Assembly: GCA_030836185.1 (NCBI GenBank)
Contig: JAURQH010000102.1
Coordinates: 62,001-126,000 of the forward strand
DNA length: 64,000 bases
Origin: Planctomycetota bacterium
GTDB taxonomy: Bacteria; Planctomycetota; Planctomycetia; Planctomycetales; Planctomycetaceae
Direction of reading: 5' to 3'
The translations under genes were made by a program, and so were the position numbers. Within the stretch, counting starts at the first letter, position 1; every line of letters begins with the position of its first letter. The notes beneath the pieces were generated by a model. It ran no database searches, was not told where the DNA came from, and was given only the letters and a program-made list of their open reading frames with translations. This document shows positions 44-55,320 of this stretch, piece after piece.

Positions 44-290
44 ATGACGACCGCTGCAACGTGAGAAAGGAGGCGATCTCGCGTGGCGTAGAAGATACGC
101 ACCCATAAAAAGTGACACACCCTCACAAAATGAAGATCGCCATAAACCGAACGATGCCAAAAACTTGCTCAAGAGTATGGAAGATTCGGAATCAAGATTC
201 GGCAACATTTGATTCAAGATTTGATCAACATTCGGTCAAGGTGTGTCCCCGAATTTCCGAATCTTGACATCTTGAATCGGGTGTTCAATG
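44..290 (-). repeat. Dispersed intergenic repeat, copy 1 (inverted relative to copy 2)
   Basis: Read on the minus strand, this stretch aligns almost end to end with 55071-55320 on the plus strand, with only scattered substitutions and very short indels (more than four fifths identical by eye). It begins at the stop codon of the acyltransferase gene and may continue off the left edge, because both copies end near a shared ATTGCCAA. It contains short AATCTT/AATGTT motifs spaced about one helical turn apart. The open frame crossing copy 2 is broken by a stop here, so it is unlikely to be coding. The function is unknown; a non-autonomous mobile element or a structured RNA is possible. Confidence 0.8.
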
Positions 291-1490
291 TTTGGAAGAG
301 ACATTCTTGGCCGTGACACGATCCAACAGATTTTGCACGCTTTGTTCGAGTTGCTGAGCCAGGTCGGCGGTGGCTGTTTTGCTTTTGGGGATCGCCGTCA
401 CGTCAATTGGTTCGCCGAAGGAAACAACCGTCCGTCGGCGACCACGAATCGTGGCTGTTTTGTTGGACAGGATATCTTCCTCAAATTTGTCGAGGGTCTC
501 GGCCATTCGTTCGATGCTGGGATTTTCGGCAACATAGTCTCCCGGATAGCTAAACATCTGGGTAACAAGGTAGAGGTCGTCCAAGTCGCGATAGCAGGTG
601 TCGCGGGTGGGAGTCGGTTCGGTGAGAGTTTCCAGTTGTTCGATGGCTTTCTGTCGAACGGCTTTGACTCGTTCGGGAATGCGGTCGCTCGGATTCTCGA
701 CACCGTATTTCGACTCCAGAGGTTTCACAATGGCATCCGAAAGATGTTGCACTCGCTCGGGAATACGGCCCGTCCGTGCAGCCCCCAGATATTCGAGTTC
801 TTTCAGCGAGAGGATTCCTTCGGCGAGGCGATAAATTCGTTCGTGCAACGGGACATCGGGACGAGGTCGCCAATGCATGGAGACTTCAAGTTGGCTCATC
901 AACTCTAATAGTTCTTCCGTGGGGTCTTCGGTGTAGAGATATCTCAATCCACACGGGATTGCGTAAATCGGTCGATCTGATCGTCTTGCCGCAGAGAGCG
1001 CAATGGCCGCCGCTCCTTCGCGAAACGGCGTCACCCGTTCGTTGATGTGATAAACTTCACCTTCGGGAAAGATGACCAAAGGATGTTTGCCGGTTTGCAA
1101 GATTTCGACGGCTTGCTTAAAGGCTCGCAAGTCGGTCCCCTCACGATCAACGCTGAAGCAGCCATGACTCCGCAGGAACCAGCTTCGCAGTTTGCTGCAG
1201 AGACCCAACACCTGCCAGGCAGTCATAAAGTAGAAACAGGTTTTTGCTTCGTGAGCCGTGTGATACATGATCACGGCATCGGCGTGAGCCGAGTGATTGG
1301 GAGTGATCAGGATGCCAGCGTTTTCATCGAGTATTTTTTGCAGATGTTCGAGACCGCGGATCTCGACCTCGTCCAGCTTCTGCGTTTTGACACGATAGTT
1401 GGTATGAGTGAATCGGCAGCAACGGACCAGCCACGGTTTGAGCAACGGAGACCACCAGCGGTCCGGTTTACGAAACTGTGTCGGGTCCAT
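285..1490 (-). CDS. PlsC-like 1-acylglycerol-3-phosphate acyltransferase family protein
   Basis: This 401-residue protein belongs to the lysophosphatidic-acid acyltransferase (PlsC) superfamily, which transfers acyl groups to glycerolipids at the inner membrane. The sequence shows the catalytic HX4D box at His66-Asp71 (in NHSAHAD) and the FPEG substrate-binding box at 141-144. The family core is usually about 240 residues; here roughly 200 extra C-terminal residues follow, rich in charged helices and with no recognised domain. It lies last in the minus-strand run after the microcompartment genes, 78 bp below the beta-propeller gene, but has no obvious link to sugar breakdown. The exact acyl acceptor cannot be told. 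Confidence 0.8.
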   Translation of the reverse strand: MDPTQFRKPDRWWSPLLKPWLVRCCRFTHTNYRVKTQKLDEVEIRGLEHLQKILDENAGILITPNHSAHADAVIMYHTAHEAKTCFYFMTAWQVLGLCSKLRSWFLRSHGCFSVDREGTDLRAFKQAVEILQTGKHPLVIFPEGEVYHINERVTPFREGAAAIALSAARRSDRPIYAIPCGLRYLYTEDPTEELLELMSQLEVSMHWRPRPDVPLHERIYRLAEGILSLKELEYLGAARTGRIPERVQHLSDAIVKPLESKYGVENPSDRIPERVKAVRQKAIEQLETLTEPTPTRDTCYRDLDDLYLVTQMFSYPGDYVAENPSIERMAETLDKFEEDILSNKTATIRGRRRTVVSFGEPIDVTAIPKSKTATADLAQQLEQSVQNLLDRVTAKNVSSKH

Positions 1491-1568
1491 AAGGCACGCT
1501 TTAAGGAATCAGTTTGTCATTGAAACAACAGGCGAAGTGGAAGCAATAACCTCACTTGGAATCTGAAA

Positions 1569-2480
1569 CTATTTCAGCGGCGTGCCGGACAACGGTTTGC
1601 CGTTGGTCGTCAGGACTTGAAAGTGGTGGACGCGATGTGGGCCAGAGTAATCCCAGACCATTTTCTTGTCGCGAGTCACTTCAAACAGTTTGATTCCTTT
1701 TTTCGCTGCATAACTGGCGATGACTGTGTTGCCGTTGGGTAGGCGTTGAGCACCGCACGGATCGGCAAACGGCTTGCCTTCAAAATCGTCGTTCGAGACT
1801 TTCCAGATTACTTTTCCAGTTGCGTCCATTTCGACCGTTTTGTTGCCGTGCGTTAAGTTGACGAGCGTGTTTCCATTTGCAAGACGAATTGCCGTGAAGG
1901 GCCAGTTTTCAGCCGGGCGTCCACCGAGTTCCGGTAGATCGGTCGGGAACTCATTCAGCACTCGACCATCGGGAGCGTACTCTTTGACTTTGAATGCCAA
2001 GAGATGAGGGACGAGATAATTGCCACTTTTCAATTTACGCGCCATGCGGGTTTGCATGTGGGCGTTTTTGGTTTCTGGTTGAAGCGGACACTCGATAACG
2101 ATTTTGCCTTCTGTTGTGACTTCCAGTAATCGCGGTTTGCCACCGAGTTCTGTGATGAGTGTGTTGCCATTGGCGAGACGCTGAACTGTGCCAATCTCCT
2201 TATTGTCAGCCGATTTGACGTAATGGAAAACGACTTCGTGATCTTGAGTAAATTCTTTGACTTCGTTTCCCCAAGCGATCAGGACGTTACCATTTTCGAG
2301 GACATAGCCGTCTCTCGCACCGCCGCGTCCTGAGTTCCAGGATTCTTTTCCGGCTTCATCAATGATACCGGTGAAGGAGGGGCCAGCGACAAAAAAGGAA
2401 TGTGCAATCGGTTCGTCGGCAGAGGAGAGGCTGGCGAGTAAGATTGAACAGATCAGGGAAAGAAACAGTGTGCGAATCAT
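1569..2480 (-). CDS. Secreted beta-propeller protein (PQQ-like NGNTLI repeats)
   Basis: This 303-residue protein starts with a clear signal peptide (hydrophobic residues about 4-17, Ser-Ala region near 20), so it is probably periplasmic. The mature part repeats a blade motif of the form LxNGNTLI (NGNVLIAWG, NGNTLITEL, NGNTLVNLT, NGNTVIASY), each followed by a basic or acidic turn and a W or V strand. That is typical of arylsulfotransferase/PQQ-like propellers common in planctomycetes. No catalytic residues are identifiable. It sits 106 bp downstream of the last microcompartment-associated gene and may or may not be in that operon. A role in binding extracellular substrates is only a guess. 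Confidence 0.7.
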   Translation of the reverse strand: MIRTLFLSLICSILLASLSSADEPIAHSFFVAGPSFTGIIDEAGKESWNSGRGGARDGYVLENGNVLIAWGNEVKEFTQDHEVVFHYVKSADNKEIGTVQRLANGNTLITELGGKPRLLEVTTEGKIVIECPLQPETKNAHMQTRMARKLKSGNYLVPHLLAFKVKEYAPDGRVLNEFPTDLPELGGRPAENWPFTAIRLANGNTLVNLTHGNKTVEMDATGKVIWKVSNDDFEGKPFADPCGAQRLPNGNTVIASYAAKKGIKLFEVTRDKKMVWDYSGPHRVHHFQVLTTNGKPLSGTPLK

Positions 2481-2586
2481 GGGTGCGAGCTTTCTGGCAA
2501 TAATGACGAATGATCAGATGACTCGATGCTATCGAGTCGGAGATCGCAAAGCACGCAAATTCAGCCCGGAAAGAGCAGGGCGAGGA

Positions 2587-3780
2587 TTAACCTAATGAGC
2601 GTTTGAGCCGTTCGTGATGATAGGCGAGGCGTTCGTCGGACGACATTTTTGAGAAATCAGGAGTCGAATTGGAGGAGGGAGGCTGATTCGCAGTTTTGAC
2701 GGTTGAATCTTGTGGCTTGTTGGGAGTCGGGATGCTGATCGTTTTTCCGCGACTCGCGTAGCTCATCACATTGGTTTGCAGTGTCATATCTTCTTCGAGA
2801 GAACGATGTGGTTTGACGTTGAGTTTCGCGAGCACTGCATGATACGCGCGGACTGCTTCTTCGGGAGAAATCGTGCCATCAACGATATGACGCAGGAATT
2901 CAATGAACGCCAACTGGTTTTCAGCGTTGTTGATTTTGCGCCCATACAGGGCGACCTTTGCACCATGTTTTTGGGCTTCAGCCAGCATTTTAAAGGCATC
3001 GTATGTCGTGCCTGCGGAACCTCCCAGAATACCAACCACCAGATGTGGATCGAAGCGGACGAGTTCTTCCATCGCCTGCGGTCCCTGATAGACAATCTTC
3101 AGGAAGGTTGGGCGACCGGCAGAGGCGACTCCTGCAAGAGTACGAGCGATGACATCATTGATGAATTGCGGCGTTTGATCAGGGGAAACCGCGTTGGGAA
3201 GATTGGGATTAAAGACTTCGAGGAAATGTCGAAAGCCTTTTCGTTCGGCTTCTGCTCGAAACTCGTTGTAGGTGTTGAGCGTTTCGAGATCGGTTTCTAA
3301 TTGATTGTTGAACGTAACTGAGTAGAGACCCAAAGACGAGCCGATACTTCGTTCGTCATCGTCGCAATCGAGATGCCCGCATTGCATGTGATCGATGCTG
3401 GCCGTGCGAAACGGGCGGGCTGCTTCCAAATGCACTTTTCCACCGCGCGGGATATGAACGTCGGTTGCATCATTGGCTCGGGTCGCCGGGGTGACGTGCG
3501 AATTCTCGAACATTTTTTCACGGATGGTGAGTTGTTCGCTGGTGCTGGTCGACATCAGCACGATATCGACCGCTCCCTGTCTAATGATTTGCCGAATTTG
3601 ATCACGGTATTCAGCAAGAGTTTTGTACTTCAGTTCGCCGTCATGTCTCTCTGGAGAGAGACCCGGCGCGCCGATACCAAATGCCATGTCGGCGTCTTTG
3701 GCGTCTGCCAGAATGAATTCGCGGCAACCGTTTGGGTCGGCGTGAATGGCGGCGAGTTTTTGATCCAGAGATTTTTGCAT
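2587..3780 (-). CDS. Conserved TIM-barrel-like protein at the end of the BMC operon
   Basis: This 397-residue protein is not recognised with certainty. The middle (about 30-310) has the alternating strand/helix pattern of an aldolase-type TIM barrel: FILADAKDADMAFG near residue 23, VDIVLMSTST near 71, FLEVFNPN near 185, TFLKIVYQ near 223, LVVGILGGSAGT near 247 and VALYGRKIN near 274. A DeoC/LacD-like class I aldolase fold is the most likely relative, and Lys225 in the FLKI strand would suit a Schiff base. The last 60 residues are a Ser/Pro-rich linker plus a short charged helix. It starts 12 bp after the methyltransferase-like gene, so it is probably co-transcribed with the microcompartment genes. 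The role is unproven; a sugar-phosphate lyase or isomerase would fit. Confidence 0.55.
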   Translation of the reverse strand: MQKSLDQKLAAIHADPNGCREFILADAKDADMAFGIGAPGLSPERHDGELKYKTLAEYRDQIRQIIRQGAVDIVLMSTSTSEQLTIREKMFENSHVTPATRANDATDVHIPRGGKVHLEAARPFRTASIDHMQCGHLDCDDDERSIGSSLGLYSVTFNNQLETDLETLNTYNEFRAEAERKGFRHFLEVFNPNLPNAVSPDQTPQFINDVIARTLAGVASAGRPTFLKIVYQGPQAMEELVRFDPHLVVGILGGSAGTTYDAFKMLAEAQKHGAKVALYGRKINNAENQLAFIEFLRHIVDGTISPEEAVRAYHAVLAKLNVKPHRSLEEDMTLQTNVMSYASRGKTISIPTPNKPQDSTVKTANQPPSSNSTPDFSKMSSDERLAYHHERLKRSLG

Positions 3781-3792
3781 AGTTAATCAATG

Positions 3793-4548
3793 TTAGAAGT
3801 TACTAAACGAGGAATCCCAGGATCGAAGCTCTCCCGATTCGAGCGAGCGGGTTTTTCGATAGGCGGTCATTTGATATCGACCGGTGACTTTTCGTCCGAT
3901 GGTTTTGACCAGCGATTCATTGGCTTGATGACGCCAAGGATTTAGATCGATGGGCTCGAGTAGATGCCCCAGATTGACGTTGATGAAGCGAAGCACTTTT
4001 TTGACTTCGGGAGTGGTGCTGTCATCGAACAACAGCAATCCGCCGGGAGCACTCAGCAGAGTCAAATAATAGAAGTCAATAAAGACATCCTCGAAGAGAT
4101 GGGAGCCATCAATATATGCCATTTCGATGGATTCTGGTTCCTGAGCGAGTAACACAGGTAGTGAAAATGCCGAGCGTTGTTCCAGATGTTGGACGAAGTT
4201 CGAGAGCCCGGCTTCTTGCAGTTTCTCAAGTGCAACACTGTCCCAAAACGTGGTTTGGAATGGGTCAACTGCGATGTGTTGCTGAGAAGGTTCGTGTTCG
4301 AGTTCCTGATGAGCGTTGGCGAAGATCAGGCAACTTCCCCCGAAGGCCATACCAATTTCGATGGTTTTTCGAGGTTTCTTATCGAGCATGAGTGCTCGGA
4401 TGAGTCGCAGGTTTCCCAACGTGGAGAATGCCCCCAGTGAGTCGAAGACTTTCCCCGTCTTCCCTTCAGCGCGATCTGTTGCGATCATCTGTTTGAGGGG
4501 GGGACAGAAATCCCACTCTGATTGATTACGGAGGACCGGTTGGTTCAT
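3793..4548 (-). CDS. Class I SAM-dependent methyltransferase-like protein (Methyltransf_24 type)
   Basis: This 251-residue protein has a Rossmann methyltransferase core. The SAM-binding glycine loop is in IEIGMAFGGS (about 62-71), an acidic strand follows, then AYIDGSHLFEDV (about 144-155) and LLLFDDST (about 171-178), the pattern of class 24 and cephalosporin-hydroxylase-like methyltransferases. The substrate is unknown. It lies between the lactate/malate dehydrogenase and the TIM-barrel gene with gaps of 54 and 12 bp, inside the apparent BMC operon. A methyltransferase is not needed for the lactaldehyde pathway, so either it modifies a shell or core component or it is a passenger. No encapsulation helix is evident at either end. 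Confidence 0.65.
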   Translation of the reverse strand: MNQPVLRNQSEWDFCPPLKQMIATDRAEGKTGKVFDSLGAFSTLGNLRLIRALMLDKKPRKTIEIGMAFGGSCLIFANAHQELEHEPSQQHIAVDPFQTTFWDSVALEKLQEAGLSNFVQHLEQRSAFSLPVLLAQEPESIEMAYIDGSHLFEDVFIDFYYLTLLSAPGGLLLFDDSTTPEVKKVLRFINVNLGHLLEPIDLNPWRHQANESLVKTIGRKVTGRYQMTAYRKTRSLESGELRSWDSSFSNF

Positions 4549-4602
4549 GACATGATCTCTGAATGATCTCGATAAAACTTCTACAATTCGTGATTTGTCA
4601 TT

Positions 4603-5532
4603 TCACCCCTTCAGCACCTTATCAATCGTTTCACGCAACACAGTTCCCGAGCGTTGCAATGCCATCTTTTCTTTTGGCCACAGATCAACTTCGACACATC
4701 CAAGAACACCGGTTCGACCGACGACGGTCGGTACGCTGATGGAAACATCCCGCAGGCCATAAAGCCCGTTTTGTAATGATGAAACCGGCATGATACGATT
4801 GGAGTCCAAGGCGATTGAGTGGACCACATCGGCGATGGAAACGCCCACTGCGAAACCGGCTCCTCCCTTTTTCTTGATCACTTCGGCACCACTGCCACGC
4901 GTTTTCTTTTCGATTTCGGCAATCAAACTTTGAGTCACTCCGGGAAACTTCTCCAGCGGAATACCGGCGATTTGAGCAGCCGACCAGATTGGTACCATGC
5001 TGTCGCCATGTTCTCCGTAGATCGTGACTTCGACCTGTGTTGGCTGAACTTGCAAACGGGCTGCCAACATAGATCGTAGTCGCGTTGTATCAAGGACCGT
5101 TCCCAGGCCAATCACTTGTGAAGCGGGAAGACCCAGTTCTTGAATGGCGAGGTATGTGAGAACATCGACGGGGTTCGAGACGACAAAGACGATGGCGTCT
5201 TTCTTCAAACCGTGCGATTTGATATCGGTCAAGATGCCTTTGAACAAAGCCACGTTGCGGTTGATCAAGTCGAGGCGACTTTCATCGGGCTTACGCCGCA
5301 AACCAGCCGTGATCACCACGACATCACTGTCGGTGAGGAGTTCTGTGCCACCGGCGTAGATATTCTGGTCATACAATAGCGAACTACCATGAAGGAGGTC
5401 GAGTGCCTGACCTTCTACGAGATCCTGGTTGATATCGACGAGTGCAATATCGCGAACGATACCACCTGCCTGCAAAGCGAATCCGGCACACGAACCAACG
5501 AGTCCGCCTCCACCAATAATACTGACTTTCAT
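4603..5532 (-). CDS. L-lactate/malate dehydrogenase family protein of the BMC locus
   Basis: This 309-residue NAD-dependent 2-hydroxyacid dehydrogenase shows the dinucleotide loop GGGGLVGS near residue 7, Asp33 at the end of strand 2 (NAD rather than NADP), SNPVDVLTYLA at 119-129, and the catalytic His175 in GEHGDSM. The start is set at the ATG at 5532, which begins the Rossmann strand and has a GGAG ribosome site in GGAGACAGGAAA; an upstream in-frame TTG would add 17 residues from a repeat element. In PVM loci this enzyme is thought to recycle NAD+. The substrate-loop sequence AGLRRKP has Arg80 where malate enzymes have Arg and lactate enzymes Gln, so its true substrate is open. Confidence 0.85.
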   Translation of the reverse strand: MKVSIIGGGGLVGSCAGFALQAGGIVRDIALVDINQDLVEGQALDLLHGSSLLYDQNIYAGGTELLTDSDVVVITAGLRRKPDESRLDLINRNVALFKGILTDIKSHGLKKDAIVFVVSNPVDVLTYLAIQELGLPASQVIGLGTVLDTTRLRSMLAARLQVQPTQVEVTIYGEHGDSMVPIWSAAQIAGIPLEKFPGVTQSLIAEIEKKTRGSGAEVIKKKGGAGFAVGVSIADVVHSIALDSNRIMPVSSLQNGLYGLRDVSISVPTVVGRTGVLGCVEVDLWPKEKMALQRSGTVLRETIDKVLKG

Positions 5533-5554
5533 TTTCCTGTCTCCACTGTGATTA

Positions 5555-5583
5555 TGCCCTGTGAGCCTGCGCTGGCGGCTCAA
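5555..5583 (-). repeat. Intercistronic stem-loop repeat, copy A
   Basis: A 29-bp element between the aldolase and dehydrogenase genes. Its outer 7 and 13 bases are identical to those of 7656-7684, with a variable 9-base centre. On the transcribed strand TGAGCC pairs perfectly with GGCTCA around a 9-base loop. It lies immediately upstream of the dehydrogenase ribosome binding site. Confidence 0.7.
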
Positions 5584-5603
5584 ATTGATTAACGACTCGG
5601 TTC

Positions 5604-6533
5604 CTATTTCATTGCCGCCATCACTTGATCGGTGATTGCGGAAACCAGACTGTCGATGTCTGCTCCGTTGTTATTGGCAGGAGGCGCGAAAGCCGAAGCC
5701 GGTGCGAAAGCCGACTCTTTGGCTGCACCATTGGTGGCTGGTTTTGACAAGTAGCCGGGGTATTGTGGGCCAGGTCCAAATGCAGCAGTGCGAGGCACAT
5801 CTTCCTGATAGCCTTCGCGGAATGCCGAGTTACCGCACAAGTCGCAATCTTCATTCTGGAAGCGAGGGTCATCGAAGCCGAGTCGTTTTTTCAGGTCGAG
5901 CAATTCGCGAGTCTTTTGTTCGCTGAAGAAATCGACGTTACCCAGTTGTCGTGACAACAGCAGAATTCGACAGTAGGCATCGAGAATTTCAGTCTTCCAG
6001 TAAGCGTCTTCCAGGTCTTTCCCGAAGGTGACGGTTCCGTGCGATTTTAAGATAACGGTGTTGGTCCCTTTGAGGAACGGTTTCACAGTGTCCGCGAATT
6101 CTTGACCGCCGGGGGTTTCGTAAGGAGCAATCGGCACTTCGCCCATGAAGACTTCGACTTCTGGCAGAATACATTGTGGGATCGCTTCACCGGCAACGGC
6201 AAACGCCGTGGCGTGAGGAGGGTGACAGTGAACGACCGCTTTGACATCCGGGCGTTCTTTCATGATCGTCAGGTGCAACAACACTTCGCTGGTCCGTTTG
6301 CGTTTTCCAGCCAGTTGATTTCCCTCGAGATCGACGGCACAAATATCATCCGGCTCCATAAAACCTTTACAGATCAGAGTGGGAGAACAAAGCACTTCAT
6401 TCTCACCAACGCGGATGGAGATGTTTCCATCATTGGCGGCAGCGAACCCTTTGTTGTAGACACGCCGTCCGATATCGCAGATTTGTTCCTTGAGTCTGCG
6501 ATCGTTGATGCCGCTATTCCATGAGTTGGCCAT
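5604..6533 (-). CDS. Class II aldolase (L-fuculose/rhamnulose-1-phosphate aldolase type) with C-terminal encapsulation peptide
   Basis: This 309-residue zinc aldolase would split fuculose-1-phosphate or rhamnulose-1-phosphate into dihydroxyacetone phosphate and L-lactaldehyde. The metal site is visible as His102 and His104 in VHCHPPH and a later His in LKSHGTVTFG; the acidic residue is in PEVEVF. The catalytic domain ends near residue 215 (about the usual family length). It is followed by a small Cys pair (CDLCGN), a Pro/Ala-rich linker and a final 18-residue amphipathic helix, DIDSLVSAITDQVMAAMK. This tail is the encapsulation-peptide type known from PVM microcompartments. The gene follows a BMC-P gene by 43 bp. 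It supplies the toxic aldehyde that the shell would retain. Confidence 0.88.
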   Translation of the reverse strand: MANSWNSGINDRRLKEQICDIGRRVYNKGFAAANDGNISIRVGENEVLCSPTLICKGFMEPDDICAVDLEGNQLAGKRKRTSEVLLHLTIMKERPDVKAVVHCHPPHATAFAVAGEAIPQCILPEVEVFMGEVPIAPYETPGGQEFADTVKPFLKGTNTVILKSHGTVTFGKDLEDAYWKTEILDAYCRILLLSRQLGNVDFFSEQKTRELLDLKKRLGFDDPRFQNEDCDLCGNSAFREGYQEDVPRTAAFGPGPQYPGYLSKPATNGAAKESAFAPASAFAPPANNNGADIDSLVSAITDQVMAAMK

Positions 6534-6576
6534 AAGTCAGTTCCTTCGTTCTTGAAATGTCGTATGAGTGTAGTGA

Positions 6577-6927
6577 TTATTTTTTACGAGCCGGATCGAA
6601 CAGAGTTTTCTGTTCCCCCGCTGTTTTCTTGGGGGTTGTTTTAGTTGGTTCGACATCCAAGTTGTCCAGGATGGCGGAACAATAGGCGTCGATAGGTTTC
6701 TCGTTGGGATGAAAGGGAGCAGCCGCTTCTCCCCCTTCCGAAAACGCGACCATTGAACCCTGACCGGCTCCTCGTTCATCGAGCATGACCAGTGGTTCGC
6801 CGCGTCCCGCGGGATCTCCATTCAGACCGGCGTGATTGAGAGGAACGCCGATCAACCATGTCGCACCGGCGACACTTGGATCGACCTTGGAGAGCACGAC
6901 TTTGCCCACGATTTCGGCAATTCTCAT
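6577..6927 (-). CDS. BMC-P shell vertex protein (EutN/CcmL family), third copy
   Basis: This 116-residue protein has the EutN/CcmL pentamer fold: MRIAEIVGKVVLS at the start, WLIGVPLN, then the conserved turn LVMLDERGAGQGSMVAFSEG around residues 47-66, and an acidic DAYCSAILD near 81. Pentamers of this family cap the vertices of icosahedral shells. The start is at 6927, which opens directly on the family's first strand and has a GAGG ribosome site; an earlier ATG would overlap the upstream gene. A charged tail of about 25 residues (KTTPKKTAGEQKTLF) exceeds the usual 85-100 residue length. It is one of three BMC-P genes, as is normal for PVM-type loci. Confidence 0.9.
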   Translation of the reverse strand: MRIAEIVGKVVLSKVDPSVAGATWLIGVPLNHAGLNGDPAGRGEPLVMLDERGAGQGSMVAFSEGGEAAAPFHPNEKPIDAYCSAILDNLDVEPTKTTPKKTAGEQKTLFDPARKK

Positions 6928-6943
6928 AGTCTCATCCTCTCGG

Positions 6944-7639
6944 TTACCAGTTCTTTGGAGCTTGCGGCGGACCACCCGCTGCAAGTGTTTTCATCATGTT
7001 TTGCAATTCGAAGAATCTGCGGTCGCCCGGGCAGAGTGCCACAAAGTTGGCACCCAACTGTTGTTGAACTCGGGTGACATCGGGAGCTTGCGAAACTGTC
7101 GCGGCCCGAACATGAGAGTGTCGATTTGCTCGACACACGACACGTTCTGGCTCGGACGTCAGTACCACAATTCCTGAGGTTTCTTCGTTGAGGTTCGTGA
7201 CTCCGCAGACAGCGGCTTCTTCCGCACCGCCGACGCAATCAACTGTCCAACCCCAGCGAGTCACTTCTTCATTCAGTTTTTGGATGGCATCGGAAGAGGT
7301 TGCGATGATCAAACGCCATGCAGATTTCTCCGCTTGGTTTGAATTCTCACTCACTCGCTTCCAGGTGACATCATGCTTACGGAGCCAATCTCGACCGCTG
7401 GGAGTGATGATCGCTTCGCGTTTGATGCGGAGCGAATCAACTCCCACAGCATTTTCTGATAACAAATCTTCGGTGATGACGATTTGAGATAGTTCGAGTG
7501 TGTTATTATCTGGCTGTTGGGCTGCGTGTACTCTGCTGGTCTCGCCTTCTTTTGTCGCGCGGACGACAGGCGTCGTCATTCCAAGTTGCCTCAGAACGCC
7601 GGCAACGATGTCGTTGATGGCTTGCGCGTCGATGTTCAT
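6944..7639 (-). CDS. BMC-associated protein with N-terminal encapsulation helix and degenerate RpiB-like domain
   Basis: This 231-residue protein begins with an amphipathic helix, NIDAQAINDIVAGVLRQLG, similar to the N-termini of the aldehyde dehydrogenase and PduL genes here. A Gln/Pro-rich linker to about residue 48 follows. Residues 68-95 (IKREAIITPSGRDWLRKHDV) resemble a segment seen in other BMC core proteins. The C-terminal part (about 108-215) has the pattern of the RpiB/LacAB sugar-phosphate isomerase fold: GIVVLTSEPERVVCRANRHSHVRAATV then LGANFVALCPGD. The usual RpiB catalytic Cys loop is not kept, so it may be non-catalytic or altered. The start at 7639 lacks a strong ribosome site and is preceded by a stem-loop repeat. 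Its role is unknown. Confidence 0.6.
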   Translation of the reverse strand: MNIDAQAINDIVAGVLRQLGMTTPVVRATKEGETSRVHAAQQPDNNTLELSQIVITEDLLSENAVGVDSLRIKREAIITPSGRDWLRKHDVTWKRVSENSNQAEKSAWRLIIATSSDAIQKLNEEVTRWGWTVDCVGGAEEAAVCGVTNLNEETSGIVVLTSEPERVVCRANRHSHVRAATVSQAPDVTRVQQQLGANFVALCPGDRRFFELQNMMKTLAAGGPPQAPKNW

Positions 7640-7655
7640 GTTCTTGTTTTCAAAG

Positions 7656-7935: not shown

Positions 7936-7943
7936 GAATGAAA

Positions 7944-7988: not shown

Positions 7989-8038
7989 CGGGGAGTCAGA
8001 GACTTTTTCACTCTTCAAACGTTTTGTACTTCTTGAGA

Positions 8039-46967: not shown

Positions 46968-47804
46968 ATGACGACTGTAATTGCCGCCGATCAACCACTG
47001 AAACTGGGGACACACGAATTCCCGTCTCGACTGATTGTGGGAACGGGAAAATATTCGACTTACGAGTTGATGAAAGACTGCCTGACAGTGAGTGGGGCAG
47101 ATGTGATTACTGTGGCCGTTCGTCGAGAGCGGCTGATTGATTCAGATGGTCGAAACATTCTCGACTTCATCGATCTCTCTCGATACACGATATTACCAAA
47201 TACTGCAGGGTGTTTTTCGGCAGAGGATGCAGTGCGAGTTGCTCGACTCGGACGCGAGATCCTGGAGGGATTGGAAAATCCTGGAGCAGACTGGGTGAAG
47301 TTGGAGGTTCTGGGTGACACGAAAACATTATTGCCCGATCCGGTAGCAACGCTGGAAGCCACCGAACAATTGGTCAAAGAGGGTTTTCAAGTCCTGTGTT
47401 ACTCGACCGATGATCCCATCACGGCCAAGCGTCTCAAAGAGGCAGGCGCGACATCCGTCATGCCTGCGGGAAGTCCGATTGGAAGTGGACAAGGGATTTT
47501 GAATCCCAATAACATCCGCATCTGCCTGGAGTACCTGAAAGAAAACGATCCAGAGTATCCCGTGATTGTAGACGCGGGTGTGGGGACGGCCTCCGATGTT
47601 TCGATTGCCATGGAACTCGGATGTGATGGCGTATTACTCAATACGGGAATTGCCGGTGCCCAAGACCCACTTCGCATGGCCGAGGCGATGAAATTGGCAA
47701 CGAGATCAGGTCGTCTGGCTTATCAAGCGGGACGGATTCCCAAGAAATTGTATGCGACAGCTTCGAGTCCTGAATCAGGAACAATCAGTCAGCAACCTGA
47801 ATAG
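46968..47804 (+). CDS. thiG: Thiazole synthase ThiG
   Basis: This 278-residue TIM-barrel enzyme condenses deoxyxylulose phosphate, dehydroglycine and ThiS thiocarboxylate to make the thiazole phosphate of thiamine. Family motifs include [16 protein letters not shown] (24-39), [41 protein letters not shown] with the Schiff-base Lys, [14 protein letters not shown] and [29 protein letters not shown]. The GGAGGGGG ribosome site lies inside the end of thiS. The length is typical. Confidence 0.95.
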
Positions 47805-47821
47805 CTTTTAGGCCGACCATG

Positions 47822-47862
47822 AAAAAAAACGTCTGCCCAGGAATGAATTCCCGTGACAGACG
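47822..47862 (-). terminator. Rho-independent terminator of the glutamine synthetase gene
   Basis: On the minus strand CGTCTG (47857-47862 on the map) pairs with CAGACG (47830-47835) around an inner GGAAT/ATTCC stem, followed by eight T residues. It lies just downstream of the glutamine synthetase stop. Confidence 0.8.
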
Positions 47863-47890
47863 CATGTTGAAACCTGACTGGTGTTATCAA

Positions 47891-50143
47891 TTATTTGATA
47901 AACAACATTTCTTGATAGGTCGGGAGTGGCCACATATCGTCGGCCACAATTCCTTCCAATTGATCAACGGCTTCTCGGACAGCCAGCATCGCAGGAAGAA
48001 TGACATCACACTGATGACGGGCTTCTGCTTCAGGGCATTCCGCATTCTCGTCTGCCATGGCATGTTCGAGAGTTCCAATGCTGTCTTGCAACTCTTTGAC
48101 AAGTGCTGTCACAGCATCCAGTGTGTCGGTATCGAATTCGATGCCAACCTGCTTGAGGTTCGTGCAGGTTGTTGCCAACTCATTCTGATATCGAACTGCG
48201 GCTGGGAAGATCATGATTTTGGCAATTTTGACGGCCAAATTGGCTTCTACGTCTACAGTCAGGTTGTACTGTTCGAGATAGGTTTCCAGTCGCGAGTGTA
48301 ATTCAACCTTGGAAAGAACGCCGTATTTTTCAAAGAGTTCTTCGACTTTTACTGCTTTCAAAGATGGTAACGCGTCTGCTGTTGTTTTGAGGTTCAACAA
48401 CCCCCTTTTCTCAGCTTCAGCATGCCATTCCTCGGAATAGCCATCACCATTGAAGATGATCGAAGAACATTCTTCCAGAATTTCTGAAATCAGAGTCTGA
48501 ATGGCTCCGTTGAGTTTTGAAGAATCACCCGCAGTGAGCTCTTCGAGTTTCGTGGCACAGAAATCGACGGACTCGGCAATGATCGTGTTCATGGCGACCA
48601 AGGGGCCAGCAATCGACTGATTAGATCCCACAGCTCGGAATTCGAATCGGTTTCCTGTAAACGCGAAAGGACTTGTTCGGTTTCGGTCCCCGGCATCTTT
48701 TGGGAACGGAGGAAGCACATCCACACCGACGGTCAGAGTTCCTGAATTCAGTGACTCTTTGGCGCCACCTCCTTTAATCTGCTCGAAAATGTCGGTCAAT
48801 TGATCGCCGAGGAAAATCGAGATAATCGCAGGAGGAGCTTCATTGGCCCCCAGACGATGATCGTTCCCCGCACTTGCGACAACTGCTCGCAATAATCCCT
48901 GATGGTGATGAACCGCGCGAATGATGGCGGCACAGAATACCAGAAACTGAGCGTTCTCGTGAGGAGTGTCGCCGGGATCAAGCATGTTGCCTTGAGAGCT
49001 GCTGCCGAGTGACCAGTTCACATGTTTTCCTGAGCCATTCACTCCGGCAAAAGGTTTTTCGTGCATCAGGCACGACATACCGTATTTCTCGGCAACCTTT
49101 TTGAGTGTCTGCATCATTTGTTGTTGGTGATCGGCGGCAACATTTGCTGACTCGAACATCGGAGCAATTTCAAATTGTCCCGGAGCGACTTCGTTGTGAC
49201 GAGTTTTAACTGGGATACCCAGTTTGAACAGTTCCCGTTCGGCTTCGTGCATGAAGGCCAAAACTCGTTCGGGGATGGCTCCGAAGTAATGGTCGTCGAA
49301 TTCTTGGCCCTTGGGAGGTTTGCAGCCAAACAATGTTCGCCCTGCGTTCAATAAATCGGGACGAGCATAATAGAAGTGTCGGTCGATCAGAAAGTATTCT
49401 TGTTCGGGACCAGCAGTAGAACTCACAAACGCACCGTCGGAGTGTCCGAAGAGTTTCAAGACTCTTTGGGCTTGAGTGTTCAGAGCCTGCATTGATCGCA
49501 ACACAGGAGTCTTTTTGTCCAAAGCCTCACCCGTCCACGATACAAACGCTGTCGGAATACAGAGCGTTGTTCCATTTGGATTTTCAAGGATATAAGCGGG
49601 GCTGGTTACGTCCCAGATCGTATATCCGCGAGCTTGAGAGGTGACGCGAATACCACCGGTTGGGAAACTGGAACCATCCGGCTCACCCTGAATGAGTTGC
49701 TTACCACTGAACTCGGACAGTGTCGAGCCATCAGACGTTGGTGAAAGAAAACTGTCGTGCTTCTCTGCTGTGCTACCTGTGAGTGGATAGAAAATGTGAG
49801 CGTAGTGAGTGGCTCCCTTTTCCATGGCCCAGTCTTTCATGGCCATGGCGACAACATCGGCTAATGCCGGGTCCAGTTTCTCACCCGCGTCGATTGTCTT
49901 CAGTATTGTTTTGTATGTTTCTTTGGGGAGGCGATCTTTCATCACCGATTTGGTGAAGACATTCGTGGAGTAATAATCCTGTGCGGGGGTATCCACAAAT
50001 TCGATTGATTGTGGACGCGATGCATAACTCGTGACCGCAGAGATCGCAGATTGCCGGGTCGACTGAGAGGAACCTGAACTTCCGGTTGCTCGTGGAGATC
50101 CTGATGCGGAACTGGATTGGGGGGGTAATGATGCAGTACTCAT
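47891..50143 (-). CDS. glnN: Type III glutamine synthetase
   Basis: This 750-residue enzyme makes glutamine from glutamate, ammonia and ATP. It is clearly of the GSIII (GlnN) family by size and motifs: [21 protein letters not shown] near 100, the glutamate-binding [37 protein letters not shown] and [20 protein letters not shown] Ser/Gln-rich N-terminus of about 45 residues ([15 protein letters not shown]) precedes the conserved domain and is longer than usual. The start at 50143 has GGGGAG five bases upstream. A strong terminator follows. It is a single gene. A role in nitrogen assimilation under low ammonia is family knowledge. Confidence 0.95.
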
Positions 50144-50598
50144 AGCGGCTCCCCAGAAATAGACTCTGTTGTGAATTAGGTAGGGAGACCGGCAAGAGGC
50201 TAAGTGCAAAAATGGCATCTGCGTCGTCCGATGTCCACAATCAATTACCGTCCTTGGCAAGTTCTACGTGATGAGGCAATCCAGCCAGACGCCTGCTATA
50301 AAAGCAAGTTTCGTACCTAATGGGCATTTCTCGGAAATTCGAAGAGAACTGGATGAAAACAGAATTGCTTCCTCACCGGTAGAACAGAGTCACGGAAGAG
50401 GAATTCGCGGTATTGCCTCTATTTTTAGCAACTAATCAGCCTATCTGTGTGTCTGTCACTCAGTCTGTATATCTCGCAAGATACGAGCGACAAGTGTGCT
50501 GGTCAGGCTGTGAGTTTGATCGGGAAATGCCCAGAATTGTGCAAAGTGTCTATAGAACAGGCAGTAGTGGCCGAAAACTAAGGAATTTCCCATAAGTC
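50144..50598. other. Intergenic region upstream of glutamine synthetase
   Basis: This 455-bp gap separates the glutamine synthetase start from the end of the HlyD gene. It must hold the glnN promoter. I see no convincing sigma-54 box, riboswitch or small gene; only short CTCG/CGAG hairpins near 50470-50490. Confidence 0.4.
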
Positions 50599-51855
50599 TC
50601 ACTGTCGCTCTTGGACCAAGACACCGGCCTCAACTTGATCTCCAGGATGGACAATCACTCTTTCACCTTCCACAAGTCCTTCCAGAACCTCAGCTTGCAA
50701 CCCATTACGCTGACCAATGGTGACAGGTTGCAAGACGGCACCTCCATCAACAACTTTGAAGACGGACCACTCTTCCCGATCACGAAAAAGAGCGCTGGTG
50801 GGCACGATCAAAACGTCACTTTCTTCCCAAACAATGATTTGAGCTTCCACGCGAAAGCCGTCTCCCAGTGTCTTTTTCAGTTCGATTGATTCATTGAAAT
50901 CGATCACAACATTGACACGTTGTTCCTCGACTCCCAATGCGGAAACTTTGGTGAATCCTGACGGTTCAACAAGCCGTACGATTCCATGTAAAGGCTGGTC
51001 GCCTCCCCAGTGTTCCAGTGTCACATGCGGAGGAGGAGTTCCCTCTTCCTGAAGGCGAGCGTTAATACGAACGGCATCCGAGGAGAGTACATCGACCACG
51101 ACTTCCAAATCAGTGGGGTCTCCCAACTCGATCAAGTTTTCTCCTGGAGTCACGACCTTCGAGCTTTCCTGAAACACTCGTAGCACTCGACCTGTGATGG
51201 GAGAGATAATGGAAAACTGTGTGTTCTCAGGAGATTCTGGGTCACCACCTTGAGTGCGTGTTGATGCGGCACTTGCCAACTCCAGTTCGAATTCTGCAAC
51301 TTTTTCGGCGAAGTTAGATGACTTTTCGTTCTGTTCGGCTTGTTGGACGGCCAGTTTCGCTTCATCCAATTCTTGACCTGTGACGGCATTTCGTTGATGT
51401 AGTTTCGCAATTCTCTCCAATGTTTTTTGGGCTTGAATCAATTCTGCGTCCGCTTTGACGGCTTCTTCTGTGACCTGGCGCCAGCGAGCATCGGCGGCTT
51501 TCACGCGGGCTTCCGCTTCGGCTGAGGCGCGAGCATCCAGAAGTGTCGGGTCGAGAGGTTCGATGGCCGCAAGTAATGTTTCTCCCGCTGTGAGTGAGTC
51601 ACCGGGATCGAGTTGTATTCGTTGCAGTCTTCCCGACAAGGGGGCGGCAACGACAAAACGTTCCTGAATCCGAGTCATCCCGTCTTCCTGAACGCTGACC
51701 GCCATCGGCCCCCGCTCTATGACACTCATATCAACCTTGATCGGTTGGGGCAGGAAAGCTTTAACGAGACCGGCGATCACCAAGCTGGCAACTGCGATGA
51801 TTGCGAATCGCGATAACCAGCGTTGAAGTGTTTTTTTGGAACGAGGTGCATTCAT
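50599..51855 (-). CDS. HlyD/MacA-type periplasmic adaptor protein
   Basis: This 418-residue protein has an N-terminal membrane helix (about 15-33) and then the membrane-fusion layout: lipoyl half GRLQRIQLDPGDSLTAGETLLAAI near 70-93, a coiled-coil hairpin at about 100-195 (DARASAEAEARVKAADARWRQV, LAVQQAEQNEKSS), the second lipoyl half ITGRVLRVFQESSKVVTPGENL near 215, and the beta-barrel and membrane-proximal end. It forms a bridge from an inner-membrane ABC transporter to an outer-membrane channel. It is the last of three genes (ATPase, permease, adaptor), 13 bp below the permease. Confidence 0.9.
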   Translation of the reverse strand: MNAPRSKKTLQRWLSRFAIIAVASLVIAGLVKAFLPQPIKVDMSVIERGPMAVSVQEDGMTRIQERFVVAAPLSGRLQRIQLDPGDSLTAGETLLAAIEPLDPTLLDARASAEAEARVKAADARWRQVTEEAVKADAELIQAQKTLERIAKLHQRNAVTGQELDEAKLAVQQAEQNEKSSNFAEKVAEFELELASAASTRTQGGDPESPENTQFSIISPITGRVLRVFQESSKVVTPGENLIELGDPTDLEVVVDVLSSDAVRINARLQEEGTPPPHVTLEHWGGDQPLHGIVRLVEPSGFTKVSALGVEEQRVNVVIDFNESIELKKTLGDGFRVEAQIIVWEESDVLIVPTSALFRDREEWSVFKVVDGGAVLQPVTIGQRNGLQAEVLEGLVEGERVIVHPGDQVEAGVLVQERQ

Positions 51856-51868
51856 GATGTATTGAGTT

Positions 51869-54235
51869 CTAGTCTCGCGATTTCAAGACAGAAATTAAAT
51901 CGAAATGATCCACTTTTCGACGCACGATCAATCCAGAAACTAAGGCAGCCACCATAACGACAACGGCTGAAAATCCAAAAGAATAAGGCTTAAATGCCAA
52001 GGGAATGCGGTACATGTCGGTCTCTAAAGCAGACGAGAGAATTGCCGAAAAGCCATATCCAATGATGAGCCCTAGAGGGATGGCCACCAGTGTGACGATT
52101 GCCAATTCCCCCAGCAAAATCGTGGAGACCTCGGCTCGGGTGAACCCAATCACTCGCAGCGTGGCGAGTTCACGAGCTCGTTCGGACAGGGAAATACGAG
52201 CTGTGTTGTAGACGACACCGACCGCGATGATGCAGCCGAACATGATATTGAAGACGTTCATCTTCAGCATGTTTTCTCCGACAGTTTTCTGAAAGCTCTC
52301 GCGAGCCGCTTTCAAAATCGTGACTCCGGCGACTCGGGGAGTTTCTTTCAGTTGTCGATACAAGTTGTCCATCTCGCGCTCATCGACTTGTAGATAAGCG
52401 CCCGAGATCGAAGGACCTTCCTGAAGAAAGCTTCGTGACGCGTCAATGGAGAGATAAGCGTTCGTACCACTGAAATCAGTGACTGTGCCCGTTACTCGTA
52501 GCTTCGTGGTTTGACGACGACCATCGAGGACTTCGACTCGAATTTCTTCTCCCGGCTTGATATGTAAAATTTCAGCAAGTTTTTCTGACAAAAGCACTCC
52601 TTCCGGTGGAAGTGGAACCCGTTTTTCGTCGGCATTCATAATCCGAAACAGTTCAGCATCTGGTTCGAGACCTGTTAGAGAGAGCTCTTTCTCGAGGGTC
52701 CGATAGCGGAGTCGGACGGGAAGTTGTCGAAAAGGCTCAGCGTGCATAACGCCTGGTAGGTTTCGAAGTGCATGGAACGCACTATAATCCGACTCCTCGA
52801 CGAGATTAACTGTGATGTCCTGCCGTTGTGCGATTGAAAATTGATGCTCCATGATGTAGTTGATGGCATCGATGCTAAATCGACCCAAGACCATTACGGC
52901 GACCGCCAAAGCAATTCCAAAAGCCGACAATGCCGTTTTGAAGGGCTTGCGTTCCAGTTGTCTCAAAATCATTCGGACGGATGCCGATAGGAACGCTGCC
53001 AGACCGAGTCGTTCCACGATGGTGGCGCGAAATTGTGCCGGCGGCTCGGGACGCATCGCTTCTGCCGGAGGTAACCGGGCGGCAGAAAGGACCGTGCGAA
53101 AAGTTCCTCCCACCGCAAACAGAAGGGAAATAACAACTCCAATCACGACCACTCTGAAATCGAGTTGAAAGAAGATGAGGGGGAATTTGTAGAATTCTCC
53201 ATACATCTCGGTCACGCTGATTCCCAACGCTCCTCCCCATCCAATTCCAATCAGAATACCCAATCCGGCAATCGAGAGAATCAATTTCAGGTAATGACTG
53301 ACAATGTGAAAGTTGCCATATCCAAACGCTTTCAGCATGGCGATTTGTTCGCGTTGGGTGCTAATAATTCGAGAGACAACAACATTTAACAGGAACGCCG
53401 AGACACCCAAGAAGATCGTAGGGGTGATCTTGCTCATGGCTTTGAGTTGCGACAGCTCATCACTCAAAAACGAATACGACAGTTGATCATCTCGTCCATA
53501 AGATTCAAAGCCACCGTAAGGTTCCAATAACAGATCAAGACGTTGCAATGTCTCCGGCAATGACGCCTCGCGACGCAGTGTCATACAAACATCATTGAAC
53601 GCACCGTCCATATCGTAGACCGTCGAGAGAGACTCGTCGTCCATCCAAAGGACTCCAAATCGTCTGTCATCGGGGATGATGGCTCCTCCTCCCAGAGAGA
53701 TGATGTACTCGGGAGAGAGGACCGTTCCGACAATTTTCAGTTCCTGTTTTTTGCCGTTAATGACGGCACCGATGAAGTCTCCCGGGTTCAGATTGTTGGC
53801 AACCATAAAGGCTTCACTCGCGAGGACTTCATCTCTTCGGTACGGTTCTGGAAATCGACCGTCTCTTAAGAACAAGGCGTTTAATGTCGTTTCATTCGAT
53901 TCGGGAAGCGAAATCAGTCTCCCGGTTGCCGGCTCTGGTAAGCCAGGCACATCCAGCGTGACTTCTTTGACGATCCGGGTTTGCACCTGAGAGACGCCGG
54001 GAATTTCGCGAATCCGGCTGACGAGTGAATCGGGCGCACGTTGAAGTTGAGCAAACACATCTCCGAAACGATAACGATCAAAATAAGTTTGACTGGTGAG
54101 ATCGAGAGAGCTGTAAGTTGATAGCGACATGACGAATATCGCCACTCCACTGGCAATCACCAAAACGATTGCGATTGCTTGGCCTCGAATGTGCCATAAG
54201 TCGCGTAATAATTTTCGGTTGATAGCTCGGATCAC
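51869..54235 (-). CDS. FtsX-like ABC transporter permease, duplicated form
   Basis: This 788-residue protein has an N-terminal helix (about 17-40), a large periplasmic domain, then three helices (about 270-390), a second helix near 430 followed by another periplasmic domain, and three C-terminal helices (about 690-785). That is two FtsX/MacB-core units, as in large permeases of the DevC/LolCE-like exporters. ISTQREQIAMLKAFGYGNFHI and SERARELATLRVIGFTRAEV are the coupling motifs facing the ATPase. Its partners are the ATPase six bases upstream and the HlyD adaptor downstream. The substrate is not evident. Confidence 0.9.
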   Translation of the reverse strand: MIRAINRKLLRDLWHIRGQAIAIVLVIASGVAIFVMSLSTYSSLDLTSQTYFDRYRFGDVFAQLQRAPDSLVSRIREIPGVSQVQTRIVKEVTLDVPGLPEPATGRLISLPESNETTLNALFLRDGRFPEPYRRDEVLASEAFMVANNLNPGDFIGAVINGKKQELKIVGTVLSPEYIISLGGGAIIPDDRRFGVLWMDDESLSTVYDMDGAFNDVCMTLRREASLPETLQRLDLLLEPYGGFESYGRDDQLSYSFLSDELSQLKAMSKITPTIFLGVSAFLLNVVVSRIISTQREQIAMLKAFGYGNFHIVSHYLKLILSIAGLGILIGIGWGGALGISVTEMYGEFYKFPLIFFQLDFRVVVIGVVISLLFAVGGTFRTVLSAARLPPAEAMRPEPPAQFRATIVERLGLAAFLSASVRMILRQLERKPFKTALSAFGIALAVAVMVLGRFSIDAINYIMEHQFSIAQRQDITVNLVEESDYSAFHALRNLPGVMHAEPFRQLPVRLRYRTLEKELSLTGLEPDAELFRIMNADEKRVPLPPEGVLLSEKLAEILHIKPGEEIRVEVLDGRRQTTKLRVTGTVTDFSGTNAYLSIDASRSFLQEGPSISGAYLQVDEREMDNLYRQLKETPRVAGVTILKAARESFQKTVGENMLKMNVFNIMFGCIIAVGVVYNTARISLSERARELATLRVIGFTRAEVSTILLGELAIVTLVAIPLGLIIGYGFSAILSSALETDMYRIPLAFKPYSFGFSAVVVMVAALVSGLIVRRKVDHFDLISVLKSRD

Positions 54236-54241
54236 GGGAGG

Positions 54242-54982
54242 TTACCAATTGAGTTCCGCTGCGGACAGTTTGTGAGTGTTGTGTTCGATGTTGGAGATCT
54301 GCCCATCAGAGAGTGAGATCACACGGTCAGCCATCTGGGAGATGACTTGATTGTGCGTAATGACGGCAGTGGTTGTTCCTAGATCGCGATTCACACGTGC
54401 AATGGCGTCTAACACGACCATACCTGTCTGAACATCGAGAGCACCGGTTGGTTCGTCGCAGAGTAAGACCTCAGGGCGTTTCGCGATGGCACGAGCAATG
54501 GCGACGCGTTGTTGTTCTCCTCCCGAAAGTTGTGACGGGAAGTGGTCCATACGGTCTTTCAGGCCAACAATGTCGAGTGCTTCCTCAGGAGTGAGTGGAT
54601 CGAGAGCGATTTCCGTGACAAGTGAGACATTCTCGCGCGCCGTCAACGAGGGAATCAGATTGTAAAACTGGAAAATAAAGCCCACATGTTCTCGCCGAAA
54701 CCGAGTCAAGGCGGCATCGTTTCCTGCTGTGAGGTTCTGATCGAGATAATGGACGGTACCCGAGGTGGGGACATCGAGTCCCCCCAGGATATTGAGGAGT
54801 GTCGATTTGCCCGAGCCAGAAGGTCCGAGCAACACGACAAATTCTTTCTCGAATAGTTCCAGATCAATTCCGCGCAACGCTTGGACCTGGACCTCACCCA
54901 TGTCATAGGTTTTGGTGAGACCGCGAGCATGAAACACCGATTTTTGAGGGGTTGGTTTTTCAGGATGAGGCAACGGAGACAC
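54242..54982 (-). CDS. ABC transporter ATP-binding protein (LolD/MacB type)
   Basis: This 246-residue ATPase has Walker [10 protein letters not shown] near residue 53, signature [19 protein letters not shown], Walker [13 protein letters not shown] and the switch His in VITHNQVI. The [25 protein letters not shown] region is typical of the LolD/MacB group that energises FtsX-like permeases. It has 17 extra residues at the N-terminus. It heads the three-gene exporter operon. Confidence 0.92.
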
Positions 54983-55070
54983 TTTCGAGTGCGTGGGCGT
55001 TTTTCATTTCGTCATTCAGTGTTCCATGATACTGGATTCTTTTGTGGAAAACTTCTTCGGCTTATTCGAA

Positions 55071-55320
55071 CAATGAACACCGTTTTCAAGATTTGAAGAT
55101 TTGGAGATTCGGGGACACGCCTTGACCGAATCTTGACCAAATGTTGAATCAAATCTTCCCGAATCTTGATTCCGAATCTTGTGTACTCTTGAGCAAGTTG
55201 TTGACACCGTTCGGTTTGCGTTGTTCTTCACTTTATGAAGGCGAGTCGCTTTTTGTGGGTGCGCATTTTCCACGTCACGCGAGATTGCTCTCTTTCTCAC
55301 GTTGCAGTGGTCGTCATTTT
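55071..55320 (+). repeat. Dispersed intergenic repeat, copy 2
   Basis: Plus-strand copy of the element found inverted at 44-290. The strongest blocks include GGGGACAC, CTTGACCGAAT, CCGAATCTTGATTCCGAATCTT, ACTCTTGAGCAAGTT, CGTTCGGTTT, CACGCGAGAT and CTTTCTCACGTTGCAG. Five AATSTT motifs start at 55129, 55140, 55152, 55162 and 55175, and AAGATT-type inverse motifs lie at 55089-55112. A weaker resemblance continues to about 55391. Function is unknown. Confidence 0.8.

What the first reader, a model, noticed from the sequence alone, without database searches (positions are those of the whole stretch)
44..55320. Diverged 250-bp intergenic repeat present twice in opposite orientation, bracketing the window
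Seen: 44-290 (minus) and 55071-55320 (plus) align along their full length with scattered substitutions, and both sit at gene ends. Copy 1 begins exactly at the stop codon of the acyltransferase gene. Neither copy keeps an open frame across the shared part, so the constraint is at DNA or RNA level, or the copies are old members of a mobile family. No transposase gene is linked. I know no named family that matches.
Basis: seen in the sequence. Interest (0 to 1): 0.72.

Follow-up and report, generated by a model that had tools for sequence, protein, structure and literature searches.

The report
Modular intergenic repeat evolving in concert
The two repeats belong to a large family of non-coding DNA blocks, found so far in only one genus of planctomycete bacteria, that mostly stay at the same places in a sister species while their sequences are copied over one another within each genome.

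Summary
The two copies are 260 nt (35-294 minus, 55067-55326 plus), 83% identical, gap-free. They are the left module (A) of a longer composite. In 50 of 62 right flanks a second module (B, ~110 nt) follows on the same strand, directly or after spacer cassettes. B's tip is an exchangeable hairpin. Module A or its left end is at 57 places in the own genome (5.16 Mb); a sister species has at least 52 A modules. The third genus member has 38 B motifs and other A sequences. Outside the genus the B motif is at chance level (1 of 394 genomes).

Sites are inherited but sequences are not. In 22 sister-species pairs with homologous left flanks, flanks are 87% identical and A modules 77%, like random re-pairing (76.8%). 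Best paralogs are 89-92%. Linkage between columns falls within tens of bp. This is concerted evolution, most simply by gene conversion. Some right flanks are swapped, as recombination between copies would do.

In 71 of 95 cases the element lies downstream of its left-hand gene. It is non-coding and has no convincing Rfam match. I found no partner enzyme, clean empty site or target duplication. Origin is probably a non-autonomous, BOX/MITE-like element; function is unproven.

The parts
35..294 (-). Copy 1, module A (260 nt); contains the stop codon of the acyltransferase gene
1..25 (-). Copy 1, first part of module B1 (GTTCAAATTGCCAA...); the rest of B lies outside the window (B2 near contig C87:61804-61869)
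   Evidence: L114: B1 at 10-72 and B2 at 170-236 after the A module
55067..55326 (+). Copy 2, module A (260 nt)
55067..55206 (+). Copy 2, domain I of module A: imperfect hairpin made of CAAGATTC/GAATCTTG-like words
   Evidence: z only -1.6 for this copy, -4.5 for copy 1
55207..55326 (+). Copy 2, domain II of module A: variable middle, conserved end ...CACGTTGCAG-GGTCGTCATT
   Evidence: column conservation; no significant fold
55327..55380 (+). Copy 2, spacer cassette with hairpin around CCAATGTGC-CTGC-GCACAATGG, shared with other copies
55381..55491 (+). Copy 2, module B: B1 (AATTGCCAAAGATCGA), short apical hairpin (TCGCCGTCTAGCGA), B2 (ACGAACGCTAACTCTGGTA), then TTTGGCAAG and a T-run
55543..55978 (+). 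Copy 2, right tail: further repeat modules also found in right tails of other copies
   Evidence: (L041 and L255 tails, 77-78%)

Best explanation
A genus-restricted family of composite non-coding elements. Each has a fixed left end, module A (hairpin domain I plus domain II), an optional spacer made of exchangeable cassettes, and module B (two conserved sequence blocks around an exchangeable hairpin). Origin (inferred): a non-autonomous insertion element of BOX/MITE kind that settled mainly downstream of genes. Present behaviour: most insertions are shared at the same sites with a sister species (shown), while copies in one genome overwrite each other in short tracts, most simply by RecA-type gene conversion (homogenisation and mosaicism shown; enzyme inferred). 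Crossovers between copies exchange their right flanks and so rearrange the chromosome (seen in the assemblies; misassembly not excluded). The two window copies lie in opposite orientation 55 kb apart, so recombination between them would invert that segment (inferred).
For: Copy number: 48 distinct A modules in G000 and 52 in G002 (6 and 3 of them partial); nine further left ends in G000. Composite: B follows A on the same strand in 50 of 62 flanks, and 47 of the 50 start at 10-11, 28-30, 53-60, 76-89, 111, 190-193, 222, 251-268 or 323-325 nt. Site inheritance: 28 of 47 G000 left flanks match the flank of a held G002 element locus, not counting L038. Of 17 further flanks sought, 11 were located in G002; 5 have an element at the junction and one about 0.2 kb on. 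One site has the element in all three species with both neighbours syntenic. Copy 1's site in G002 and copy 2's site in G001 carry elements with different domain I words. Homogenisation: 22 pairs, flank 0.869, paired A 0.767, best paralog 0.921/0.895, 22 of 22 below the best paralog, 0 of 22 ranking first among 49 G002 copies. Random re-pairing gives 0.7676 against 0.7668 observed, 2897 of 5000 as high. In the first 60 columns, next to the unique flank, 22 of 22 are again below the best paralog. Mosaicism: r2 falls from 0.14 to 0.03 by 15-40 bp in G2 (0 of 1000 permutations) and from 0.32 to 0.11 in G0 (7 of 1000); four-gamete failures 1942 of 1958 and 2440 of 2643. Placement: left gene points towards the element in 34 of 46 and 37 of 49; of 60 gene pairs 28 are convergent and 5 divergent.
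Against: No significant gradient of remembered orthology next to the unique flank, which gene conversion would often leave; there is at most a hint (0.34 of other G002 copies are closer than the paired one in the first 60 columns, 0.48 in the last 60; paired copies 0.767 against 0.760 for other cross-genome pairs, p = 0.09). B's conserved blocks persist between genus members whose genes are about 74-80% identical, which could mean selection for a function that this reading does not need. No transposase, terminal inverted repeat on the composite or target duplication was found, so the mobile origin is inferred. Five of the 11 sites show no element in G002. All three genomes are drafts, and 19 of the 40 places lie within 800 bp of a contig end.
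Confidence: 0.62

Rival explanations
1. Still-mobile element with site-specific or structure-specific targeting: each lineage lost and regained copies at the same junctions, so paired copies look like random paralogs without gene conversion.
For: Paired copies share no more than random pairs; sharing with the more distant G001 is low (0 of 8 sites examined; two shared sites known); one G002 site holds a 132-bp palindromic short form where G000 has the full module.
Against: No target motif beyond about 7 nt at the element's own end: at most 0.31 bits at any position from -8 to -40, against 0.8-1.2 bits at -4 to -1 (41 and 33 sites). In 15 of 22 pairs the flank homology runs to within 34 nt of the junction on both sides, so independent reinsertion would have to be very precise. 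Linkage decay over tens of bp inside the module points to copying between copies, not whole-unit replacement.
Confidence: 0.15
2. A family of functional elements kept by selection, e.g. 3'-end RNA structures, insulators between convergent genes, or nucleoid-organising protein sites bound at B2; homogenised because all must fit one partner.
For: B2 (AACGCTAACTCTGGTA) is nearly invariant across three species while neighbouring sequence is replaced; minus-strand domain I has 47 double-change cells against 15.7 in shuffles (0 of 200 as high) and at most 24 when slid; element present at one site in all three species; preference for gene 3' ends.
Against: The number of pairs with a double change in minus-strand domain I (10) only equals the best slid version (10); plus-strand domain I does not beat the slid control. 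Domain II folds no better than shuffles on the plus strand (z -0.4) and little better on the minus strand (-1.7); G001 forms of domain I fold weakly (z -2.3 to +1.1). Few sites shared with G001. No terminator or promoter pattern at copy 2. Preference for convergent gaps is also reported for pneumococcal BOX and RUP (PMC3049150, passages read).
Confidence: 0.2
3. Assembly artefact: short-read assemblers joined flanks to the wrong copy, which would by itself randomise pairing.
For: 19 of the 40 places lie within 800 bp of a contig end; the genomes are drafts, and the G002 contig names look like MEGAHIT k141 output (recalled).
Against: The result holds for the first 60 and 110 columns, directly beside unique flank, and mosaicism acts over tens of bp, inside one read. 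Copies average only 80% identity within a genome, so most differ within one k-mer.
Confidence: 0.05

Closest known systems
BOX elements of Streptococcus (boxA-boxBn-boxC)
   Same: Composite, ordered modules with a variable middle; interspersed; predicted to fold; over-represented between convergent genes (PMC3049150, passages read)
   Different: No sequence relation tested beyond Rfam; larger (roughly 0.4-1 kb against 67-637 bp in that paper); middle cassettes of several unrelated kinds; no terminal inverted repeats on the composite; near-complete concerted evolution at shared sites
[quoted passage not shown]
   Same: Non-coding interspersed copies; left domain is an imperfect hairpin; one short form (L275) has matching inverted ends
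   Different: Composite has no convincing right-end inverted repeat; no target duplication or parent transposase found
REP/BIME mosaic elements of enterobacteria
   Same: Mosaic intergenic elements, mostly at 3' ends or between convergent genes (general knowledge, not tested here)
   Different: Units here are 100-260 nt; REP unit features were not tested
Multigene families under concerted evolution (e.g. rRNA operons; recalled)
   Same: Fixed loci, paralogs more alike than orthologs
   Different: About 50-60 dispersed non-coding loci of unproven function, mosaic and with exchangeable hairpins

Membership tests
MITE | Terminal inverted repeats on both ends | tested here: not met
   (module A plus up to 1500 nt to its right, many flanks shorter): no convincing inverted end in 100 composites, two weak matches at about 1.65-1.7 kb (L168, L260). 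One stand-alone short form, L275, has it.
MITE | Target site duplication / empty site | tested here: inconclusive
   sites without element found, but none clean at both junctions
MITE | Parent transposase with the same ends | tested here: inconclusive
   50 left ends in the own genome; in the loci read no intact transposon with those ends was noticed; 3 of the 9 new ends were not read and no transposase family was searched
BOX element | Ordered 5' module - variable middle modules - 3' module | tested here: met
   (50 of 62 flanks)
BOX element | Sequence homology to boxA/boxB/boxC | not tested
   Only Rfam was searched
Group II intron fragment | Domain V-VI (RF00029) | tested here: not met
   none inside the element in the window or in five loci; one intron end lies directly beside the element of L152
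Integron attC array | attC sites with an integrase and gene cassettes | not tested
   Copies are dispersed; mechanical ORFs overlap some tails and were not studied; no attC model run
Concerted multigene family | Paralogs closer than orthologs at shared loci | tested here: met
   22 of 22 pairs

The most novel reading that the evidence does not exclude
A dispersed non-coding gene family with about 50-60 inherited chromosomal stations per genome, overwritten from an RNA or cDNA template: the minus-strand transcript ends in the domain-I hairpin and is reverse-transcribed and copied back into the existing copies. That would explain the minus-strand covariation, the fixed left end, the word-like slippage in the hairpins and the complete loss of orthologous memory.
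Probability: 0.1. Interest if true: 0.85.

Novelty: new variant of a known kind. Interest (0 to 1): 0.55.

Why it matters
Bacterial intergenic repeats are usually described as mobile elements that differ in position between strains (recalled). Here most positions persist between two species while sequence memory is erased, in dispersed non-coding DNA and down to tens of base pairs. That makes the family a natural assay for gene conversion in a planctomycete, a likely driver of chromosome rearrangement, and a warning that such elements break draft assemblies. If module B binds a protein or acts as RNA, it would define a new chromosome- or transcript-end system.

Tried and rejected
Protein coding: rejected for module A. 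Known RNA family: only tRNAs at gathering threshold in the window; at relaxed threshold in five loci only matches below gathering score touch the element or its tail (microRNA models on L192, Acido-Lenti-1 in the tail of L165), taken as chance. Plasmid-borne: module A has no match in the plasmid collection; the phage collection was not searched. Virus-borne: two exact B2-motif hits in viral contigs, which look by eye like coding sequence and carry no A module. Family-wide or class-wide element: not supported; the G057 hit looks like coding sequence. Intrinsic terminator or sigma-70 promoter at copy 2: 0 found. Insertion next to terminators as a rule: 9 of 45 against 4 of 26 control gene ends, not enough to claim. 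Orientation by replication strand: mean GC skew 0.009, p = 0.046, too weak to use. RNA structure of B: 11 predicted pairs, one with a double change. Conserved hairpin in the G001 forms: weak. Gradient of orthology towards the unique flank: not significant. Clean empty site with target duplication: not found; the gene at the G002 site that lacks the L021 element has no match in G000. Literature: the searches listed no report of this family; only passages of PMC3049150 and PMC10969869 were read. That says nothing about papers outside that library.

Full report
What was checked. The inverted pair is real: 35-292 and 55069-55326, 258 nt, 83%, no gaps. A profile extends it to 260 positions, 35-294 minus and 55067-55326 plus. 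The window is contig C87:62001-126000 of a draft genome, G000, of 5.16 Mb in 107 contigs.

Copy number and distribution. A search of the own genome gave 42 matches at 40 places; only 40 of 82 candidates were scored. After fetching loci, 48 distinct A modules with profile score above 60 were held from G000 and 52 from the sister species G002, none from the held loci of G001; 6 and 3 of these are partial, and a duplicate check found none at the same place (L009 and L011 share a repeat to their left but lie on different contigs). A left-end pattern found 50 left ends in G000, nine of them at new places; six of those nine were read, some truncated. An exact pattern scan of a collection of 84,980 species genomes hit only one MAG, JAQWSQ01, Planctomycetaceae (32 stretches), which matches G002; the own genome may have been left out there. 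A 286-nt query containing A matched 1 of the 58 genomes other than G000. The B2 motif with at most one mismatch occurs 45, 38 and 60 times in G000, G001 and G002, and once in 1 of the other 394 genomes searched; the reversed control gave single hits in 4 genomes.

In nearly all mapped loci the left flank carries no repeated sequence up to the junction, while the right flank does; exceptions include L009, L011 and L037, which share a hairpin repeat on the left. Module B follows on the same strand in 50 of 62 right flanks; 7 of the 12 misses have 210 nt of flank or less. Of the 50 B starts, 47 fall at 10-11, 28-30, 53-60, 76-89, 111, 190-193, 222, 251-268 or 323-325 nt after A, which matches no spacer or particular cassettes. 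In other copies the short hairpin inside B is replaced by longer inserts. B also occurs behind an A module of another type, with CAAGAGT/ACTCTTG words instead of CAAGATTC (L165, L176; L249), and in G001 behind a third set.

Sites are inherited. Of 47 G000 A modules with a left flank, 28 match the flank of a held G002 element locus; L038, whose match is to repeat sequence, is not counted. Among the 22 pairs with full A modules, flank homology runs to within 34 nt of the junction on both sides in 15 and to within 254 nt in all. Seventeen further flanks were searched as one concatenated query. Eleven were located in G002: five carry an element at the junction (L035, L036, L015, L037 truncated, L131 as a 132-bp palindromic short form), one about 0.2 kb further (L170, type 2), and five show none (L005, L021, L013, L017, L128; for the last three the alignment stops more than 130 bp short). 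Eight were examined in G001, none with a recognisable element. Copy 1's site in G002 carries an element at the same junction with a different domain I; copy 2's site in G001 carries, by eye, the left domain of the G001 form, after which the contig ends. At the L172/L140/L207 site all three species have an element and both neighbours are syntenic: flanks 86-89% between G000 and G002, 74-78% with G001.

Sequences are not inherited by site. For the 22 G000-G002 pairs: flank identity 0.869, paired A identity 0.767, best paralog 0.921 in G000 and 0.895 in G002. All 22 fall below the best paralog on both sides, none ranks first among 49 G002 copies, and the mean rank is 22. Shuffling the pairing gives 0.7676 against 0.7668, with 2897 of 5000 shuffles as high. 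In the first 60 columns, where a short read would also cover unique flank, paired identity is 0.819 against 0.96 for the best paralog. No stretch of the module keeps significant memory of the site (12 column ranges, smallest p 0.147). A hint remains: paired copies are 0.767 against 0.760 for other cross-genome pairs (p = 0.09), and in the first 60 columns 0.34 rather than 0.48 of the other copies are closer than the paired one. Linkage between variable columns decays from r2 0.14 to 0.03 by 15-40 bp in G2 and from 0.32 to 0.11 in G0. G0 is not monotonic: r2 is 0.16 at 120-180 bp, which fits a few large subtypes.

Recombination of flanks. Nine left-paired loci were long enough on the right to test: one search found two with a syntenic right flank, and a third (L163/L264) is syntenic, so three of nine. 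Three loci have the right flank of a different G002 copy (L029 and L168; L032/L118). This fits crossovers between copies, but draft assemblies could mimic it, and 19 of the 40 places lie within 800 bp of a contig end.

Placement. With ORFs called mechanically (150 aa or more), the left-hand gene points towards the element in 34 of 46 (G000) and 37 of 49 (G002) cases, with a median of 55 and 65 bp from stop codon to element (many sites are shared, so the two counts are not independent). Of 60 loci with both neighbours called, 28 are convergent, 18 and 9 tandem, and 5 divergent; no genome-wide background was computed. Copy 2 has an ABC-ATPase gene on its left and the tRNA-Thr-Tyr-Gly-Thr, EF-Tu, tRNA-Trp cluster on its right.

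Structure. Domain I folds better than shuffles in copy 1 (z -4.5), the L173 subtype (-3.1), both type-2 copies (-3.5, -6.3) and the short form L275 (-6.3), but weakly in copy 2 (-1.6) and in the G001 forms (-2.3, -1.1, 0.0, +1.1); domain II gives -0.4 and -1.7 on the two strands. Counted over 91 copies, double-change cells in minus-strand domain I are 47 against 15.7 in shuffles (0 of 200) and 24 at most when slid, but the number of pairs with a double change (10) only equals the best slid version (10). On the plus strand domain I does not beat the slid control; domain II slightly does (16 cells against 11.1 in shuffles, 12 slid). B is conserved as sequence, with 11 predicted pairs and one double change.

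Reading. The simplest account is an old insertion family, BOX/MITE-like in style, now inherited in place and homogenised by frequent short-tract gene conversion. The conversion machinery, the mobile origin and any function are inferred. The near absence of positional memory is stronger than I expected and leaves room for re-insertion or template-driven overwriting. The conservation of B2 across the genus leaves room for a selected function.

Noticed in passing
L152:1631-1703: A group II intron 3' end (RF00029, E 3e-7) lies directly beside the right end of an element, on the opposite strand.
   Followed up: partly
L311:1500 onward: Module A cut short next to sequence that looks like an IS3-type transposase remnant (by eye, not tested).
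   Followed up: no
L203-L232 (G001): Spacers and apical inserts built of short slipped words (TTTTGGATTTTCGATT-, CAGTTTCTAGTTTCT-, GACCACTGACC-like), resembling the short tandemly repeated sequences known from cyanobacteria (recalled).
   Followed up: no
window 56283-58674: Cluster tRNA-Thr, -Tyr, -Gly, -Thr, EF-Tu, tRNA-Trp just right of copy 2.
   Followed up: no
L038 left flank: A type-2 domain I sits left of a type-1 module: an apparent tandem or nested pair.
   Followed up: no
L275:1785-1916: 132-bp palindromic short form with matching inverted ends at a site where G000 has the full module A; the only one found in the loci held.
   Followed up: partly
C11:193, C99:363, C104:150334 of G000: Three further left ends not read.
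   Followed up: no
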